Positions 5,808 to 49,560 of a DNA stretch of 64,000 nucleotides are shown one piece after another. The notes below the pieces were generated by a model that was not told the origin of the DNA, made no database searches, and saw nothing but the letters and a program-made list of their open reading frames with translations. The translations under genes were made by a program, and so were the position numbers. The stretch is from Sphaerochaeta globosa str. Buddy (GTDB lineage Bacteria > Spirochaetota > Spirochaetia > Sphaerochaetales > Sphaerochaetaceae): NCBI RefSeq assembly GCF_000190435.1, contig NC_015152.1, positions 440,458 to 504,457 of the forward strand, in the 5' to 3' direction. Numbering within the stretch: position 1 is the stretch's first letter; each line of letters begins with the position of its first letter.

Positions 5808-7274
5808 GTGCGAAAGAAGCCGAACATCGTGTATATTCTTGCAGATGACTTGGGGTACGGTGATGTTTCATCGCTGAATCCCGGTTGTCCTTTCACAACC
5901 ACCAACTTCGACTGTTTGGCAGAGGAGGGCATGAGCTTTACCGATGCTCATGCCACCAGTGCCGTATGTACCCCCAGCCGCTACAGCATTATTACCGGGC
6001 GCTACAATTGGCGTTCCAAGCTTAAGAGTTACGTGCTGGGAGGCTTCTCTCCTCCGTTAATCGACAACAATCGAAAAACAGTAGCGCAGCTCTTGAGAAA
6101 GGGTGGTTACGCTACCCATATGGTGGGCAAGTGGCATTTAGGCATGACCCTTCCCAAGGGAGAGGGCTTTGTTGAGGCCCAGGAGTTTGGTGACAGCTAT
6201 CCGATAGACTACACCAAACCCATTGAAAACGGACCGACCAGCGTGGGGTTCGACTCCTATTACGGTATCAGCGGATCGCTCGATATGCCCCCGTATGTAT
6301 ACATCAAGGACGACCGGTTCACCGCTGTTCCTACCAGGACGACAAAAGGGTCGGGCAAGGGCTTTTGGCGCGAAGGCTTGACTGCCGATGATTTTGTCCA
6401 CGAAGAGGTACTCGATCACCTTACCGACAAGGCCTTGGAAGTAATTCGAGAGAACAAGGACAATCCGTTCTTCCTCTACTTCGCCCTCCCGGCCCCCCAT
6501 ACGCCCATTCTTCCCCATCCCAAATTCAGGGGAGCATCGAATACCAATGCCTATGGGGATTTTGTCCTGCATTGCGACGACGTGGTGGGCAGGGTGCTCG
6601 ATGCCCTCAAAGAGAACGGCATTGATGAACACACCCTGGTCATTCTCACCAGCGACAACGGATGCTCTCCGATGGCTGACTTCGCCGAGCTTGCACAATT
6701 CGGACATAATCCAAGCTATCACTTCCGGGGGATGAAATCGGACATTTTTGAAGGTGGACACCGGGTGCCGCTTCTGATGCGCTGGCCTGAGGTGATAGCG
6801 CCGCATTCAATTTCCAACCACCTTGTCTGCCTATCCGATTTCTATGCTACTGCCGCCGATATTCTTGGTTTCGGCTTGGCCGAGGATGAGGCGGTGGATA
6901 GTGTGAGCCTTCTGCCGTTGCTCTCAGACACTACTCACCCTGAAGTACGAGATTCATTGGTCCATCAGAGCCTTGACGGTTCGCTATCCCTGAGAAAAGG
7001 AGCATACAAGCTTGAGATGTGCAAAGGCTCGGGCGGGTGGTCATACCCTTCAAGCGGAAGCGAGGATGCACAGAATCTTCCTTCCGTGCAGTTGTACAAC
7101 CTTGAGTGCGATATTGCAGAGACGGTGAATGTGCAGGCCGAGCACCCTGATCTGGTAGCTGCCATGAGACAAGAACTTGCCTGCCTCGTAAGGGAAGGCA
7201 GAAGTACATCCGGCCCCCGACAGCTCAACGACGGGGTTGCTGTTTGGGAGACGGTTGCCTGGCTTGACGACTGA
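5808..7274 (+). CDS. Cys-type sulfatase (arylsulfatase family)
   Basis: This 488-residue alkaline-phosphatase-fold sulfatase has PNIVYILADDLGYGD at residues 5-19, with the metal-binding Asp pair at 13-14. The signature CTPSR at 54-58 contains Cys54, which must be oxidised to formylglycine for activity. GKWHLG and the later TSDNGC metal site are also present. There is no signal peptide, so it should act inside the cell on imported sulfated sugars. The GTG start at 5808 is supported by GGAGG 9 nt upstream and by starting right at the conserved core. In anaerobes maturation needs anSME, whose gene in this window is interrupted near 46.2 kb. Confidence 0.92.
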   Translation: MRKKPNIVYILADDLGYGDVSSLNPGCPFTTTNFDCLAEEGMSFTDAHATSAVCTPSRYSIITGRYNWRSKLKSYVLGGFSPPLIDNNRKTVAQLLRKGGYATHMVGKWHLGMTLPKGEGFVEAQEFGDSYPIDYTKPIENGPTSVGFDSYYGISGSLDMPPYVYIKDDRFTAVPTRTTKGSGKGFWREGLTADDFVHEEVLDHLTDKALEVIRENKDNPFFLYFALPAPHTPILPHPKFRGASNTNAYGDFVLHCDDVVGRVLDALKENGIDEHTLVILTSDNGCSPMADFAELAQFGHNPSYHFRGMKSDIFEGGHRVPLLMRWPEVIAPHSISNHLVCLSDFYATAADILGFGLAEDEAVDSVSLLPLLSDTTHPEVRDSLVHQSLDGSLSLRKGAYKLEMCKGSGGWSYPSSGSEDAQNLPSVQLYNLECDIAETVNVQAEHPDLVAAMRQELACLVREGRSTSGPRQLNDGVAVWETVAWLDD

Positions 7275-42829: not shown

Positions 42830-44362
42830 ATGGAGTATTCAATGCCAAGACAAGTTGTGTTCATTATGACCGATACCACCCGTAAGGATATGCTGGGTTG
42901 CTATGGGGACAGTCGTATGCAGACGCCCAATCTCGATCGTCTTGCCGATCAGGGCTTGCGCTACGAGCAGGCGTATTGCTGTCAGCCGGTCTGCGGTCCG
43001 GCTCGTTCAGCGTTGTTTACCGGGACTTTCCCTCATTCCAATGGGGTGTTTTCGAACAATCTCCCGTTGGGAGACAATGTGAAGACGCTGGGACAGCGGC
43101 TTTCGGACAACGGTATCCAGGCAGCGTTTACGGGCAAGTGGCACCTCGACGGAGGTGATTATTTCGGCTTGGGTCGCTGTCCAGATGGCTGGGATTCTGC
43201 TGTTTGGTACGATATGCACAACTACCTCGAGGAGCTTTCCGTCGAAGAAAGGCTTCGCTCACGCAAGTCGGAGACCGCCTACGATGAGACGTGGGGGTCT
43301 GAGATGACGTATGCCCACCGGGTTTCTGACAAGGCAATCGGGTATTTGGCCGAGCATGAGGGAGAGGACTTCTTCCTTGCTGTCTCGTATGACGAACCGC
43401 ACGGCCCGTTTATTTGCCCGCCCCCCTTCAATACGATGTACGACGGATTCTCCTTCGAGGATAATCCCACGTTCCATGACACCTTGGATGCGAAGCCGAT
43501 GCTCCAGCGCCTGTGGTCCGGTGATGACCTGACAAAGAGTCCTGAGGCGTTGCATGCCCCTTCGAAAATGCTGTCACTGTATTTGGGATGCAACAGCTTT
43601 GTCGACCACCAGATCGGCAGGGTGCTGAACGAGGTCTATCGTCTGGCTCCGGATGCTTTGGTGATTTTCACTTCCGACCATGGGGATATGCTGGGGTCAC
43701 ACCGCCTCCAGGCCAAGAATGCAGCATTCTACAAGGAAATAACCAACATTCCGTTCATCGTTAAGCCGGGTAGGGGGCATGAGGGCAACCAACAGGTGGT
43801 GGTCCATCATCCGGCAAGCCACATCGATGTGACTCCTACGGTGTTGGACTACTTTGGCATTCCGCTTCCCAAGCTGCTTGAGGGGACGAGCATGTTGCGC
43901 CAGTTCGAAAACCCCGAGGTTCGGATCAATGAGCAGGTGTACTGTGAGTTCACCCGTTATGAAGTCGACCACGATGGCTTTGGGGGACTGCAGATGATGC
44001 GTTCTGTCACCGATGGACGCCACAAGCTCACGATTAACCTGATGGATAGTGACGAGCTCTATGACTTGGCCTCTGATCCGCACGAGGTAGTGAACCTAAT
44101 TCATGATGCACAGTACGCGGCCCTGAGGAACAGGCTGCATGATCTCCTACTAGAGCATATGGACCAGAGTCGGGATGTCTTTCGCGGGTATCAGTGGGTT
44201 GCCAGACCTTGGAGAGGGGACCGCTCTGCAAGTTGGCAGAATAGCGGTAAGACGCGCCAGCGGGAGAACGAGGAGTACGAGAGCCGCCAGTGGGATTACG
44301 ACACCGGCCTTCCCATGGAGAGCGCAGTGCGGGGCAAGAAGCTCTACGATGTAAAGAAGTAA
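42830..44362 (+). CDS. Cys-type sulfatase
   Basis: This 510-residue sulfatase opens RQVVFIMTDTTRKDMLGCYG (metal-site Asp and Thr) and carries the active-site signature CGPAR at 55-59, where Cys55 is the formylglycine precursor. GKWHLDGGDYFG and FTSDHGDMLGSHRL complete the catalytic site. The latter resembles choline-sulfatase, N-sulfoglucosamine and iduronate-2-sulfatase groups more than arylsulfatase A. No signal peptide is seen, so it acts in the cytoplasm on sugars imported by the preceding ABC system. ATG 42842, with GGAG 6 nt upstream, is an alternative start. It depends on an anSME, whose gene 1.7 kb downstream is disrupted. Confidence 0.9.
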   Translation: MEYSMPRQVVFIMTDTTRKDMLGCYGDSRMQTPNLDRLADQGLRYEQAYCCQPVCGPARSALFTGTFPHSNGVFSNNLPLGDNVKTLGQRLSDNGIQAAFTGKWHLDGGDYFGLGRCPDGWDSAVWYDMHNYLEELSVEERLRSRKSETAYDETWGSEMTYAHRVSDKAIGYLAEHEGEDFFLAVSYDEPHGPFICPPPFNTMYDGFSFEDNPTFHDTLDAKPMLQRLWSGDDLTKSPEALHAPSKMLSLYLGCNSFVDHQIGRVLNEVYRLAPDALVIFTSDHGDMLGSHRLQAKNAAFYKEITNIPFIVKPGRGHEGNQQVVVHHPASHIDVTPTVLDYFGIPLPKLLEGTSMLRQFENPEVRINEQVYCEFTRYEVDHDGFGGLQMMRSVTDGRHKLTINLMDSDELYDLASDPHEVVNLIHDAQYAALRNRLHDLLLEHMDQSRDVFRGYQWVARPWRGDRSASWQNSGKTRQRENEEYESRQWDYDTGLPMESAVRGKKLYDVKK

Positions 44363-44489: not shown

Positions 44490-44563
44490 GTCGCTATACA
44501 GTATTTGGGTTTTGTTTGGTTGTAAGGAAGCGCGGCAGCTTTCCTGTCGCAAAGGACCCTAAA

Positions 44564-46048
44564 ATGAAACGAACCAGTCTAGCACGCACAATCTCTCTCG
44601 TGCTTCTTCTCTCTTTTTTGTTTTTCAGTTGTGCAACCCCGATGGAACAGCAAGTTGTTCCGCCGATTCCAGCAGAACCTGTTGAGGTTGTTGCCCAGCC
44701 CGAGGCTGTGGTAGTTGAGGAACCAAAACTTGCCGTTGCTACCATTGAAATGCCTCCCCGATATATGAAATATCCGCCCGTAGTTCGGTATGGTGAAGTG
44801 ATCGGCCTGGTCAATGAGACCGGGTATTCGATCAAGAGTTTCGATCTCTTCAACGACTGGATGTATCTGGAGAGTACAATTAAGATAAACATGCTCTCAG
44901 AAGACCTTGGCGATGGGCAGCGGATAATCATCCACCTTGCGCAGTATCCTGAACTCTCTGAGGAGCTTCAGAAGCGTGACGGCTCCACTTTCTCATTCAA
45001 TGCAAGTGATTGGGATGAAGACCTGTATTGGGGAGAGTGGAATCCAGGTGAGGATGCCTGGAACTTGGTACTTACTGCCGATCACATGCTCAGCGTTACT
45101 CCAGACTTGGACATTGAGGCTTTCGGACCCTCGTTAGTCATAGCCAACCAGAGCGGGTACAGCTTTGAGCGGCTGTATATTGAGAGAAAGAGCCCCAATG
45201 AGATGGATGGGAGTGAAATCAATTTGCTCGGGGAGCAATTGCTCCCCAGTGGACATCTCGCCCGCATTAAGACTGAGGAGCTTGCTCACTTGCAGGAGTT
45301 CTTGACCTTCGATGCCTATGCAACACTTACGATAACTGCCTACGATACCGATGGGGATCGCTATACCTTGCTTTGGCATCCCACTACCGACGCTTGGTTC
45401 ATCGCGCTCACCTTGGCTGAGTTGCAGTGGCCGGAGGGCGATCAATTCTACCTGACGGTGGAAAACCAGACCGGTCAGACGCTGTGGTACTTGTATGCTG
45501 TCCCCGACTCGTATTTCCAAGAGGGCGAGTATGGTTCAGACCTTCTTGACTGGGATCTGATTTACGACTCGGACGAGCTTACCGTGGACTTGGCTCAGCT
45601 CGACTACCTTGCGGACGCCCTCAAAGGAGATAGCGACGAGGTCATCCACATCGTTGCCAAGGATGCCAACGATGTTCTCTACCATAAGGAGTATTATCCT
45701 AATCAGGACATTGCTTATATTGTGTTTGAGGCAGAAGAACTCCTACAAGAAGGGGAGAGCCTTTCTCTGTACAACGACACCCCTTCAGACCTCTGGTTCC
45801 TGTATTTGTCCACCGATGAGATAGTGGATGAGGGCGACCTAGGTAGAGACCTGCTTCGTGATGAAATTTGGGAGATGCAGGAAGAGTTCACCTTCAAAGT
45901 CAGCCCTTCCCTGGTGGAAAAACATCCGGTACTCCATCTCTATGCATATGATTATTTGGACAATGTCTACCATAAGACATGGAAGGTCGGTGATGGCTGG
46001 GCTCTCACATTCAATGCGGAGGATTTGAGTGAGACAGCTCCCCTGTAA
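44564..46048 (+). CDS. Lipoprotein with four tandem repeats of about 100 residues
   Basis: This 494-residue protein starts with a lipoprotein signal peptide (LLSFLFFSC, lipidation at Cys23) and a Pro/Val/Glu-rich linker to about residue 65. Four divergent repeats follow at about 78-176, 188-286, 293-394 and 397-488. Each begins with a short strand and Asn (GLVNETGYSIKSFDL, VIANQSGYSFERLYI, VENQTGQTLWYLYAV, LYNDTPSDLWFLYLS), has an Asp/Glu-rich middle, and ends in a Trp- or Tyr-containing strand (WNPGEDAWNLVL, WHPTTDAWFIAL). The pI must be very low. AAGGA precedes the ATG. I know no named family; a surface or periplasmic binding or adhesion role is a guess. Confidence 0.7.
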   Translation: MKRTSLARTISLVLLLSFLFFSCATPMEQQVVPPIPAEPVEVVAQPEAVVVEEPKLAVATIEMPPRYMKYPPVVRYGEVIGLVNETGYSIKSFDLFNDWMYLESTIKINMLSEDLGDGQRIIIHLAQYPELSEELQKRDGSTFSFNASDWDEDLYWGEWNPGEDAWNLVLTADHMLSVTPDLDIEAFGPSLVIANQSGYSFERLYIERKSPNEMDGSEINLLGEQLLPSGHLARIKTEELAHLQEFLTFDAYATLTITAYDTDGDRYTLLWHPTTDAWFIALTLAELQWPEGDQFYLTVENQTGQTLWYLYAVPDSYFQEGEYGSDLLDWDLIYDSDELTVDLAQLDYLADALKGDSDEVIHIVAKDANDVLYHKEYYPNQDIAYIVFEAEELLQEGESLSLYNDTPSDLWFLYLSTDEIVDEGDLGRDLLRDEIWEMQEEFTFKVSPSLVEKHPVLHLYAYDYLDNVYHKTWKVGDGWALTFNAEDLSETAPL

Positions 46049-46241
46049 GGCCGCTTGCGAAGAATTCCGATACAGGGTATACACAGCATATGGATACGCA
46101 TAGACCACAGCTGACGATGATGATCAAACCAGCGTCAGCTGCCTGCAACCTTGCCTGTGACTACTGCTTCTATGTAGATACCGCCCATCATCGTGAACTG
46201 GGTGTGCTTCCTCTGATGAACAGTGAGGTAGCTGATGCTAT

Positions 46242-46249
46242 CATTCAAA
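46242..46249 (+). repeat. Target-site duplication, left copy
   Basis: CATTCAAA directly precedes the element and is repeated at 47456-47463. Eight base pairs is the usual duplication length for the IS1595 family. Because of an A-run the exact border could shift by 2 nt (CATTCA as the shared word). Confidence 0.8.
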
Positions 46250-46274
46250 AAATCCGTATTTGCACACGGGAGCT
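46248..46274 (+). repeat. Left terminal inverted repeat of the IS
   Basis: This 27-bp repeat begins AAAAATCCGTATTTGC and ends CGGGAGCT. It is perfectly complementary to 47429-47455. The outermost two A may belong to the duplicated target. Confidence 0.9.
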
Positions 46275-46350
46275 GACCAGTGAATAGGAAGGGACGCCGA
46301 ATCATGGTAGAATATCCATGAATCCGGCGGAGAGGCTGCATTTGGAGCGT

Positions 46351-46397
46351 GGTGGCCCTTGATGCAGCTTCAAAGCTTGGTTCTTCAAGAGGCCACC
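46351..46397 (+). promoter_or_regulatory. Stem-loop hiding the transposase ribosome site
   Basis: GGTGGCC plus CTTGA (46351-46362) pairs with TCAAG plus GGCCACC (46385-46397), 12 bp with a single bulged A. The putative ribosome site AAGAGG (46387-46392) lies within the 3' arm, 9 nt before the ATG. A transcript entering from the host gene would fold and mask it, as in the known translational protection of IS10 and IS50. Confidence 0.55.
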
Positions 46398-46401
46398 ACC
46401 T

Positions 46402-47430
46402 ATGAAACCAGATCAGCACAGCACATCCCGGCGTTCCACGCCCTGGGATGAACAAGGAGACATCACTCCTTCCCAGGCTTTCATCAAGCAGCATCATGAG
46501 CGTCATTACCATGAGCGGCACCATGCCTTAGCCGAAACAAATGAAGCCGAGTTCCTCAACAGCAAGATTCCTTTTGGTTGCAGGCTGTGCGGATCCAGTG
46601 ACATTAAGAAGGCCGGACTGTCGGCAAATGGTGTGCAGATGTACCGATGCAATGCCTGCAACAGGAAATTCACCGTGCTTACGGGAACGGTCTTCGACGG
46701 GCACAAGATACCAATCAGCGAATGGATAGAGTATCTGTACAACTTGTTTTCCTATGTAAGCCTGCGTGCGGACTCATGGAACAACAAGAACGCCATAACC
46801 ACGTCCCGATTCTGGCTTGAGAAGGTATTCCTCCTTGTCCAGGAATACCAGGAGGGCATCGTCCTCGAGGGTGAGGTGACCCTTGATGAGACCTTCTATT
46901 CCGTACGCACCTCGGATCTGGTCATGCAGGAAGGAAAGAAGCTGAGAGGCATATCGAGAAACCAGATCTGCATCGGCGTCGCCTGCGACTCCCATCATGT
47001 TTTCTGCACATTGGAGGGATACGGAAAGCCAACCCAGAGAAAGGCGTACGAATCCTTCAAGGATCACATCAGGCCTGGTTCGGTGCTCATCCATGACAAG
47101 GAAGGCTCCCACAGAAAGCTTGTTGAGGGACTTGGCCTTCAAAGCAGGGCCTACCAGTCGGCAGAGCTTAAGAAGCTCCAAGACAAGGAAAACCCGATGG
47201 AACGCGTCAACAGAATCCATTTCTATCTGAAGAGGTTCTTTCTTGCCCATTCCAGCTTCGACAGGGACTCGATTGAAGGCTTCATCAACCTCTTCTCATT
47301 CGTGATGAATCCTCCTAAGGAAAAGCTTGAAAAAGTGGATATTTTGATCAATTTGGGAATTGAGTGCTCCCGAAACATCTCATATCGGGAGCTGTTTCTC
47401 AAGAAGAAAGCGAATTCTGAAGGTTTCTAG
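46402..47430 (+). CDS. IS1595-family transposase
   Basis: This 342-residue protein has an N-terminal zinc ribbon (CRLC at 60-63 and CNAC at 83-86) and an ISXO2-like DDE catalytic domain. Candidate acidic residues are Asp162 in VTLDETFY and Asp232 in LIHDKEGSH, with the final position supplied by MERVNRIHFYLKRF at about 266-279 (Glu267, or Asn270/His273 as in the DD-E/N group). It is full length and apparently intact, and its stop codon lies inside the right terminal repeat. Confidence 0.9.
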   Translation: MKPDQHSTSRRSTPWDEQGDITPSQAFIKQHHERHYHERHHALAETNEAEFLNSKIPFGCRLCGSSDIKKAGLSANGVQMYRCNACNRKFTVLTGTVFDGHKIPISEWIEYLYNLFSYVSLRADSWNNKNAITTSRFWLEKVFLLVQEYQEGIVLEGEVTLDETFYSVRTSDLVMQEGKKLRGISRNQICIGVACDSHHVFCTLEGYGKPTQRKAYESFKDHIRPGSVLIHDKEGSHRKLVEGLGLQSRAYQSAELKKLQDKENPMERVNRIHFYLKRFFLAHSSFDRDSIEGFINLFSFVMNPPKEKLEKVDILINLGIECSRNISYRELFLKKKANSEGF

Positions 47431-47455
47431 CTCCCGTGTGCAAATACGGATTTTT
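47429..47455 (+). repeat. Right terminal inverted repeat of the IS
   Basis: Perfect complement of 46248-46274, beginning AGCTCCCGTGTGC and ending CGGATTTTT. It overlaps the transposase stop codon by 2 nt and contains the GTG (47436) that could start translation of the orphaned anSME C-terminal part. Confidence 0.9.
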
Positions 47456-47463
47456 CATTCAAA
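47456..47463 (+). repeat. Target-site duplication, right copy
   Basis: Second copy of CATTCAAA, directly after the element. Confidence 0.8.
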
Positions 47464-48397
47464 AGAGTCTTTCAGAGGCCAAGCATTGCAGTTTTGTCTT
47501 CCAGGGTGGTGAACCTACCTTGGCAGGCTTAGGGTTTTTTGAACGGTTTGTAGAGCAGGTTGCTTTGCACAAGAGCGAAGGCCACACGATTACCTATGCG
47601 TTTCAGACCAATGGTCTGAAGCTGGATACTCAGTGGGCTCGCTTCTTCAAGGAACACGGTTTTCTGGTCGGTGTCTCCTTCGACGGCAGTCCACGTCTGC
47701 ATGACCTACACCGCTATGATGCCCACAAGAGGGGTAGCGGCAGGTCGGTTGCTGCAACCATTGCCTTGCTGAAAGCAGAGGGCGTACAGTTCAACGTCCT
47801 TTCGGTGGTGACCAATGAGCTGGCCCAGAATATCAAGCAGGCCTATACCTACTTGGTAAACCATGAAGTCTACTACCATCAGTACATTGCCTGCATGGAT
47901 CCCCTTGATGGTGATAAGAACTATCTTTCCCCTGCAGTATACGCACAGTTCCTCAAGGAGCTGTTTGACCTGTGGTTCGACTCGTGGCAGCAGGGAAAGC
48001 CGGTCTCGATCCGGTTTTTCGACAACTTGGTGGGGATGCTTCTCGGCTATCCTCCTGAAAGCTGTGATATGGGCGGGATTTGCTCCGCCAACTATGTAGT
48101 GGAGAGCAACGGCAACATCTACCCCTGTGACTTTTACTGTACCGATGATCAAAGCCTTGGAACTATTGTGGAAAACTCCTTTGCAGAACTTGATGCCAAA
48201 CGCTCAAAGCTTCGGTTCATCGAGGATTCACCCAATCGAACTGATGTGTGTGCAACATGTCAGTGGAGGATGCTCTGCCGCGGTGGTTGCAAACGGTATC
48301 GCAGTGAGTCAGGCTACAAGTTCTGCTCTTCGATGCAGGAGTTTTTCCCATATGCGATACAAAGGCTTCAGATGGTTGCCCAAGCGATGAGGAGGTC

Positions 48398-49006
48398 ATG
48401 ATGAAAGTGGAAATGATCAGGGAGGAGAAAACAAAGCCGCAGATAAACCTTCGGTTTTATCTCAAGCTTTTTTGGACTACCTTCAGCCTCAGCTTGTTCA
48501 CCTTCGGGGGTGGTTTTGTCATTATCAGTCTGATGCGAAAGAAAATGGTGGTGAAACTCGGATGGATCGATGACGAGCAGATGCTCGATTTCGTCACCAT
48601 AGCCCAATCCTCACCCGGTCCTATTGCGGTCAATGGTTCGTTGATGGTCGGCTACCATCTTGCCAAAACTGCCGGAGCCTTGGTTGCCGTACTCGGAACC
48701 GTGCTTCCTCCCATGATCATCCTTACCCTGGTGAGCCTGGGGTATCAGGCAGTACAGGATAATATTTGGATTGAGGCAGCCTTTCATGGTATGAGACCTG
48801 TCGTTGCAGCCATTGTGTTGCAGGTTACCTGGGCATTGTTCAAGCCCTTTCTGCAAAAAAAGAATGTACTGGCCATAGTCCTGTTTGCAATCAGTTTCAT
48901 TGCATTGTATGTACTGAAGGTCAATATCATGCTGGTCATGGTAGCAATCGTTCTCTTCTCGATTGGAAAAAGCCTGCTTGATCTGAAGAAGGAGGGACGA
49001 GAATGA
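48398..49006 (+). CDS. Chromate transporter half-protein, first of pair
   Basis: This 202-residue membrane protein with a single CHR domain has FSLSLFTFGGGFVIISLM and the conserved TIAQSSPGPIAVNGSLMVGY. Short CHR proteins come as adjacent pairs that form one transporter. The group is named for chromate efflux, though many members have unknown anionic substrates. AGGAGG lies just upstream of two adjacent ATG codons, at 48398 and 48401. The gene starts at the end of the anSME pseudogene and overlaps the second CHR gene at ATGA. Confidence 0.88.
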   Translation: MMKVEMIREEKTKPQINLRFYLKLFWTTFSLSLFTFGGGFVIISLMRKKMVVKLGWIDDEQMLDFVTIAQSSPGPIAVNGSLMVGYHLAKTAGALVAVLGTVLPPMIILTLVSLGYQAVQDNIWIEAAFHGMRPVVAAIVLQVTWALFKPFLQKKNVLAIVLFAISFIALYVLKVNIMLVMVAIVLFSIGKSLLDLKKEGRE

Positions 49007-49560
49007 ACCTTCTGTTAGCATTGTTTGTCAGTTTTTTCCAAGTAGGATTGTTCAGCATCGGCGGAGGCTATGCAGCCATGCCGCTCATTCAGGCTCAGAC
49101 GGTAGATTTGCACAGCTGGCTCACGCTTGTGGAATTTGCTAATTTGGTGACCATTGCAGAGATGACCCCCGGTCCCATCGCCATTAATTCTGCAACCTTT
49201 GTAGGAATGAAAGTAGCAGGAATCCCCGGGGTGTTTGCAGCCACGCTTGGTAATATTCTTCCCTCGGTAATCATCATGCTCATTCTGGCCAAACTGTACG
49301 AGAAGTACAGCAAGCAGACTTTGCTCAAGCGGGTGCTGGAAGGCGTGAGGCCGGTAGTGGTGTCGGCAATCTTTGTTGCAGGCATTTCCCTGTTGCAACT
49401 CGCTCTGCTTTCCTTTTCCAAACCCGATTTCTTTGCCGTAGGCGTATTTATTGTCGCCTTTATTGCCTTGAACAACAAGAAGGTTCCGCTAGGTCCCATT
49501 ATCTTGCTGGTTCTGGGAGCCTTGACGGGAATCGTGCATTATTTGGTGGTTGCGAGCTAA
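49003..49560 (+). CDS. Chromate transporter half-protein, second of pair
   Basis: This 185-residue membrane protein with the other CHR domain has FFQVGLFSIGGGYAAMPLIQ and TIAEMTPGPIAINSATFVG. It is coupled by an ATGA overlap to the first half and should assemble with it as an antiparallel pair. It ends 8 bp before the convergent DUF4386-like gene, with no visible terminator. Confidence 0.88.
   Translation: MNLLLALFVSFFQVGLFSIGGGYAAMPLIQAQTVDLHSWLTLVEFANLVTIAEMTPGPIAINSATFVGMKVAGIPGVFAATLGNILPSVIIMLILAKLYEKYSKQTLLKRVLEGVRPVVVSAIFVAGISLLQLALLSFSKPDFFAVGVFIVAFIALNNKKVPLGPIILLVLGALTGIVHYLVVAS

What the first reader, a model, noticed from the sequence alone, without database searches (positions are those of the whole stretch)
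46090..48401. Sulfatase-maturase gene cleanly interrupted by an IS1595-family element, next to two sulfatases that need it
Both sulfatases here (5808 and 42830) have Cys-type C-x-P-x-R sites and need formylglycine formation. The only anSME in the window is split by a 1.2-kb IS with perfect 27-bp ends and a CATTCAAA duplication. Virtual excision restores a 365-codon frame with all radical-SAM and SPASM cysteines, so the insertion looks recent and possibly reversible. If no second anSME exists, one insertion disables every sulfatase of the strain at once.
Basis: partly seen in the sequence, partly recalled or inferred. Interest (0 to 1): 0.85.

Follow-up and report, generated by a model that had tools for sequence, protein, structure and literature searches.

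The report
Only sulfatase activator gene, broken by transposon
In this anaerobic Sphaerochaeta-type bacterium a jumping gene has recently landed inside the only gene that activates its sulfatases, so all three of its sulfate-cutting enzymes are probably left switched off: a clean natural knock-out of a known kind.

Summary
The joined flanks give an intact 365-codon frame with every catalytic and cluster cysteine. A close relative (G049) carries the intact 365-codon gene at the same empty site.

The key question could be answered: the complete 3.3-Mb genome has no second anSME. Its one FGE-domain protein lacks the FGE cysteine pair. It has exactly three PF00884 sulfatases, all Cys-type, all without an obvious signal peptide. 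So the insertion should leave every formylglycine sulfatase immature. This is inferred, not measured; unmodified sulfatases can keep low activity.

The insertion is recent (three element copies, 0-3 differences) and probably polar on the downstream exporter genes. Nothing shows that it is reversible.

IS inactivation is an ordinary mechanism, and one anSME serving all sulfatases is known from Bacteroides. A by-product may matter more: in all 18 genus genomes that could be read, anSME is followed directly by one of two unrelated anion-exporter families (CHR pair or TauE/SafE), swapped even between sister species, which suggests export of the released sulfate.

The parts
46090..46248 (+). 5' part of the anSME gene (radical-SAM CxxxCxxC motif, CNLACDYC); its frame runs on into the element and stops at 46285-46287 (65 codons)
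   Evidence: PRK13758 positions 2-51, E 1.7e-11; TIGR03942 positions 2-45
46241..46248 (.). left copy of the 8-bp target duplication TCATTCAA
   Evidence: placement by end symmetry and by the sister copy L112
46249..47454 (+). IS1595-like insertion sequence, 1206 bp, one of three near-identical copies in the genome
   Evidence: L111: 0 mismatches in 1198 bp; L112: 3 mismatches
46249..46274 (+). left terminal inverted repeat, 26 bp
46402..47430 (+). transposase ORF, 342 aa, zinc ribbon plus IS1595-type transposase domain
   Evidence: NF033547 E 3.8e-16 but below cut-off; NF050000 above cut-off
47429..47454 (-). right terminal inverted repeat, 26 bp; read outward on the + strand it forms a 6-bp hairpin (GCAA loop) followed by ATTTTT, terminator-like
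   Evidence: -7.7 kcal/mol, z -1.7: suggestive only
47455..47462 (.). right copy of the target duplication TCATTCAA
47463..48401 (+). 3' part of the anSME gene (rest of the radical-SAM barrel, SPASM/auxiliary-cluster cysteines, YPCDFY motif)
47436..48401 (+). mechanical GTG-start ORF that begins in the element and runs into the anSME 3' part; lacks the radical-SAM cluster motif, so not a working enzyme
42830..44362 (+). Cys-type sulfatase (CGPAR), no obvious signal peptide, last gene of an ABC sugar-transporter run
5808..7274 (+). Cys-type sulfatase (CTPSR), no obvious signal peptide, after ABC transporter genes
44516..46048 (+). predicted lipoprotein of unknown family between sulfatase and anSME; conserved in G049
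48398..49006 (+). CHR-family (chromate-transporter type) half-transporter; start overlaps the anSME stop
   Evidence: PF02417 E 6e-45
49003..49560 (+). second CHR-family half-transporter, overlapping the first
   Evidence: PF02417 E 1e-45

Best explanation
A recently active IS1595-like element transposed into the genome's only anSME gene at about codon 53. It separates the radical-SAM cysteine motif from the rest of the enzyme and ends translation 12 codons into the element. No working anSME can be made, so the active-site cysteine of all three Cys-type sulfatases should stay unconverted and the strain should be deficient in formylglycine sulfatases. The insertion probably also reduces transcription of the two CHR exporter genes directly downstream. 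Shown: the insertion, intact flanking frames, the empty site in a relative, no second anSME or canonical FGE, three Cys-type sulfatases. Inferred: loss of sulfatase activity and polarity.
For: Flanks join to a 365-codon frame. It aligns end to end with the solved Clostridium perfringens anSME (4K36-4K39; E 8e-88), keeping the CxxxCxxC motif, the YPCDFY motif and the SPASM cysteines. G049 has the uninterrupted 365-codon gene at the same place after the same upstream neighbours. Whole-genome search: no other anSME; one FGE-domain protein without the cysteine pair; exactly three PF00884 sulfatases, all C-x-P-x-R. Of 15 other genus genomes with clear sulfatases, 14 keep a full-length anSME; the exception, G075, is a draft at 80% completeness. 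Three element copies with 0 and 3 mismatches over 1198 bp, each with its own target duplication. Precedent: in Bacteroides thetaiotaomicron the single anSME gene was first found by transposon mutagenesis, and its loss abolishes growth on chondroitin sulfate and heparin (PMC5872301).
Against: No activity, proteomic or read-level data. Unmodified Cys-type sulfatases can keep low multiple-turnover activity (PMC6189696), and E. coli converts some sulfatase cysteines by a route called unidentified there, so an unknown back-up cannot be excluded. Only one genome of this species was available, so whether the insertion is fixed in the species, strain-specific or arisen in culture is unknown.
Confidence: 0.82

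Rival explanations
1. Sulfatase function persists despite the insertion: through an unknown maturation route, or because the unmodified cysteine enzymes are active enough in the cytoplasm.
For: Unmodified choline sulfatase of Ensifer meliloti is a multiple-turnover enzyme, and E. coli matures some Cys-type sulfatases by a route described as unidentified (PMC6189696). All three sulfatase genes here are still intact.
Against: No other anSME-like radical-SAM/SPASM protein reaches E 0.001 in the genome and there is no canonical FGE. The formylglycine form is expected to be 5- to 2500-fold faster (PMC6189696). Intact sulfatase genes are expected anyway if the insertion is recent.
Confidence: 0.12
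2. The insertion is a minority or culture-derived form, or an assembly error; most cells carry the intact gene.
For: The flanking frames show no decay and the protein has no excess of changes against G049. Raw reads could not be examined.
Against: The genome is one contig; the three element copies have different flanks and their own target duplications, and one carries three private differences, which a misassembly would hardly produce.
Confidence: 0.06
3. The two halves are both translated (3' half from the GTG at 47436, five bases after the transposase stop) and assemble into an active split enzyme.
For: The GTG lies 5 nt after the transposase stop, so re-initiation is conceivable; the N-terminal fragment keeps the CxxxCxxC motif.
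Against: The break falls very early in the radical-SAM barrel (about residue 53 of 365). No clear ribosome-binding site precedes the GTG, and a terminator-like hairpin overlaps it. No precedent known to me for a split anSME.
Confidence: 0.02
4. The insertion is a reversible on/off switch for sulfatase maturation: precise excision restores the gene in part of the population.
For: Precise excision would restore the frame and the element is probably still mobile (identical copies).
Against: No invertible or repeatedly used site. The other two copies sit at unrelated places, one inside an ABC-permease-like gene, with no sign of targeting. No element in anSME in the other genus genomes seen here. 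Precise excision of IS elements is generally rare (general knowledge).
Confidence: 0.03

Closest known systems
Anaerobic sulfatase-maturating enzyme (anSME; TIGR03942 / PRK13758; C. perfringens anSME, PDB 4K36-4K39)
   Same: Joined flanks align end to end with 4K36, same length class, same cysteine motifs and YPCDFY motif; lies near a Cys-type sulfatase
   Different: The gene is split by an insertion sequence, so no intact protein is encoded
anSME (chuR, BT_0238) mutants of Bacteroides thetaiotaomicron
   Same: One anSME serves the sulfatases; loss, first found by transposon mutagenesis, removes growth on chondroitin sulfate and heparin (PMC5872301)
   Different: There an experimental mutation; here a natural insertion, in a spirochaete with three sulfatases that look cytosolic
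IS1595-family insertion sequences
   Same: Zinc ribbon plus IS1595-type transposase, about 1.2 kb, terminal inverted repeats, 8-bp duplication
   Different: Transposase below the NF033547 cut-off; ends begin AAAATCCG and can form terminator-like hairpins
IS-inactivated genes (IS-driven pseudogene formation)
   Same: Ordinary recent loss of function by transposition
   Different: The gene hit is the single activator of a whole enzyme class in this genome

Membership tests
anSME (TIGR03942) | full-length match to the family model | tested here: met
   The two halves together cover positions 2-362 of 363; neither half passes the cut-off of 349 bits, and intact genus members do not either (about 317-342 bits), because the family is divergent here
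anSME (TIGR03942) | radical-SAM CxxxCxxC and the SPASM/auxiliary-cluster cysteines | tested here: met
   Alignment to 4K36/4K37 and to G049 and G055
anSME (TIGR03942) | single continuous coding sequence | tested here: not met
   Split by a 1206-bp element; stop 12 codons after the junction
anSME (TIGR03942) | converts Cys of a sulfatase to formylglycine | not testable with these tools
   Needs enzyme assay or mass spectrometry
Cys-type formylglycine sulfatases (PF00884) | sulfatase family match and C-x-P-x-R signature in all genome members | tested here: met
   Three members, CTPSR, CGPAR, CMPAR
Aerobic FGE (PF03781) as back-up | catalytic cysteine pair near the C-terminal GGS motif | tested here: not met
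   L113 protein reads VKGGSYLNDAKTISSNTVGVV, no cysteine pair there; motif position from general knowledge
IS1595 family | transposase family score over curated cut-off | tested here: not met
   NF033547 59.6 bits against 75; zinc ribbon NF050000 42.5 against 28
IS1595 family | terminal inverted repeats and 8-bp target duplication | tested here: met
   26-bp perfect repeats; TCATTCAA here and AATTATTA at L112, 8 bp supported by frame restoration at L112. L111 shows 7-8 bp in an A-run

The most novel reading that the evidence does not exclude
anSME in this genus forms an operon module with a sulfate-type anion exporter that can be supplied by either of two unrelated families, a CHR pair or a TauE/SafE protein, swapped repeatedly at the same place. 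CHR proteins, known as chromate transporters, would here export the sulfate that cytosolic sulfatases release. The insertion would then silence sulfatase maturation and product efflux together.
Probability: 0.4. Interest if true: 0.5.

Novelty: new member of a known kind. Interest (0 to 1): 0.36.

Why it matters
It is a natural single-gene knock-out of sulfatase maturation with all client enzymes intact, in a non-model anaerobe. The strain could show whether Cys-type sulfatases have any maturation route besides anSME, and whether they work unmodified. It also warns that counting sulfatase genes in a genome or metagenome can overstate what a strain can do. The conserved anSME-exporter pairing gives a testable role to CHR transporters.

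Tried and rejected
Second anSME in the genome: none. FGE back-up: domain found but cysteine pair absent. A possible second broken anSME in the family (G014, flagged with internal stops): rejected, the frame runs unbroken through the cysteine motifs and the first stop lies at its C-terminal end. RNA elements in the window: none at gathering thresholds. Selection test on the broken gene: no sign of relaxed constraint (10 against 14 lineage-specific changes; dN 0.078, dS 1.46, dS near saturation), so it only says that the break is recent. Literature: no paper found on Sphaerochaeta sulfatases, on an IS in an anSME gene, or on CHR or TauE paired with anSME, within the open library searched; absence there is weak evidence.

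Full report
What is there. Window 46090-48401 holds an anSME gene cut by an insertion sequence. The 5' part encodes MDTHRPQLTMMIKPASAACNLACDYCFY... and runs 12 codons into the element before a stop at 46285. The 3' part resumes at 47463. Joining the flanks with one copy of the duplication gives an open 365-codon frame. Both halves match anSME models (PRK13758 and TIGR03942), and the joined protein aligns over its whole length with the solved C. perfringens anSME (4K36, E 8e-88), keeping the radical-SAM cysteines, the YPCDFY motif and the SPASM cysteines.

The element. It spans 46249-47454 (1206 bp) with perfect 26-bp ends and an 8-bp duplication, TCATTCAA. The placement is fixed by end symmetry and by a second copy, L112, which has the same ends and interrupts an ABC-permease-like gene whose frame returns with 8 bp counted but not with 7. 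There are three copies in the genome: this one, L111 (identical over 1198 bp) and L112 (three differences). No near-identical copy was found in 25 other genus genomes; the best match is 67% in G063. The transposase is IS1595-like but under the curated cut-off. The element has therefore moved recently.

The ancestral site. G049, a close relative, has the intact 365-codon gene after the same ABC transporter, sulfatase and lipoprotein genes. Taking G055 as outgroup, this genome's anSME has 10 private changes and G049's has 14, so there is no sign of decay.

Is it the only maturase? Yes by every search made. The genome is one contig of 3,316,466 bp, 99.97% complete. TIGR03942 finds only the two halves. 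PF03781 finds one protein (L113), which lacks the FGE cysteine pair. PF00884 finds three sulfatases, all with the C-x-P-x-R signature: CTPSR (window 5808), CGPAR (window 42830), CMPAR (L110). By inspection none begins with a signal peptide, and all three follow ABC sugar-transporter genes, so they probably act on imported sulfated sugars in the cytoplasm; this is inference. Of 15 other genus genomes with a clear sulfatase (PF00884, E below 1e-30), 14 keep a full-length anSME; the exception is a draft at 80% completeness. The pairing of sulfatase and anSME is thus the rule in the genus, and this genome breaks it by an insertion.

Consequence. In B. thetaiotaomicron loss of the single anSME gene abolishes growth on chondroitin sulfate and heparin (PMC5872301). 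By analogy all three sulfatases here should be immature. The limit of this inference: an unmodified Cys-type choline sulfatase still turns over, slowly, and E. coli matures some cysteines by a route described there as unidentified (PMC6189696). So 'strongly reduced' is safer than 'abolished'.

Downstream genes. The anSME stop overlaps the start of a CHR half-transporter, which overlaps a second. The right end of the element, read outward, folds into a 6-bp hairpin followed by ATTTTT; the fold is only weakly better than shuffles (z -1.7), so polarity on the CHR genes is plausible rather than shown.

A pattern met on the way. In all 18 genus genomes where the gene after anSME could be read, it is a CHR pair (13, one cut by a contig end) or a TauE/SafE protein (5) (family identity; genome-wide positions). 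Sister genomes G000/G049 and G101/G103 differ in which one they carry, and the anSME tree forces at least three changes on well-supported branches (that tree also held two outgroup rows on long branches). TauE/SafE proteins export small anions such as sulfite, and one has been proposed to remove the product in a sulfatase-amidase pathway (PMC10413263). Interchange of two unrelated exporters at one place suggests a shared task, most simply export of sulfate freed in the cytoplasm. No paper on this pairing was found in the library searched.

Verdict. The mechanism (IS inactivation) and the dependency (one anSME for all sulfatases) are both known, so this is a new instance of a known kind. The organism is placed near Sphaerochaeta by its relatives; the species name was not established.

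Noticed in passing
window 48398-49560; L109:7021-7818; loci L114-L124, L128-L131, L143: anSME is followed directly by a CHR pair (13 genomes) or a TauE/SafE gene (5 genomes) in all 18 readable genus genomes; sister genomes differ in which one.
   Followed up: partly
L112 (G000:C1:2882200-2884500): Another copy of the same element interrupts an ABC-permease-like gene; an 8-bp duplication AATTATTA restores a 362-codon frame.
   Followed up: partly
G000:C1 at about 266.6k, 405k, 914k, 1089k, 2577k, 2674k, 3104k: Seven places of a related element family, with local matches of 73-74% to this element.
   Followed up: no
G063 (L116): A 99% complete genus genome has an intact anSME followed by TauE but no PF00884 sulfatase was found; what its anSME acts on is unclear.
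   Followed up: no
L113:813-2300: 495-aa protein with an N-terminal hydrophobic stretch and an FGE-type domain without the cysteine pair; role unknown.
   Followed up: no
window 44516-46048: Lipoprotein-like gene of unknown family between sulfatase and anSME, conserved in G049 (78%), with about 29-30% matches at the same place in G023 and G095.
   Followed up: no
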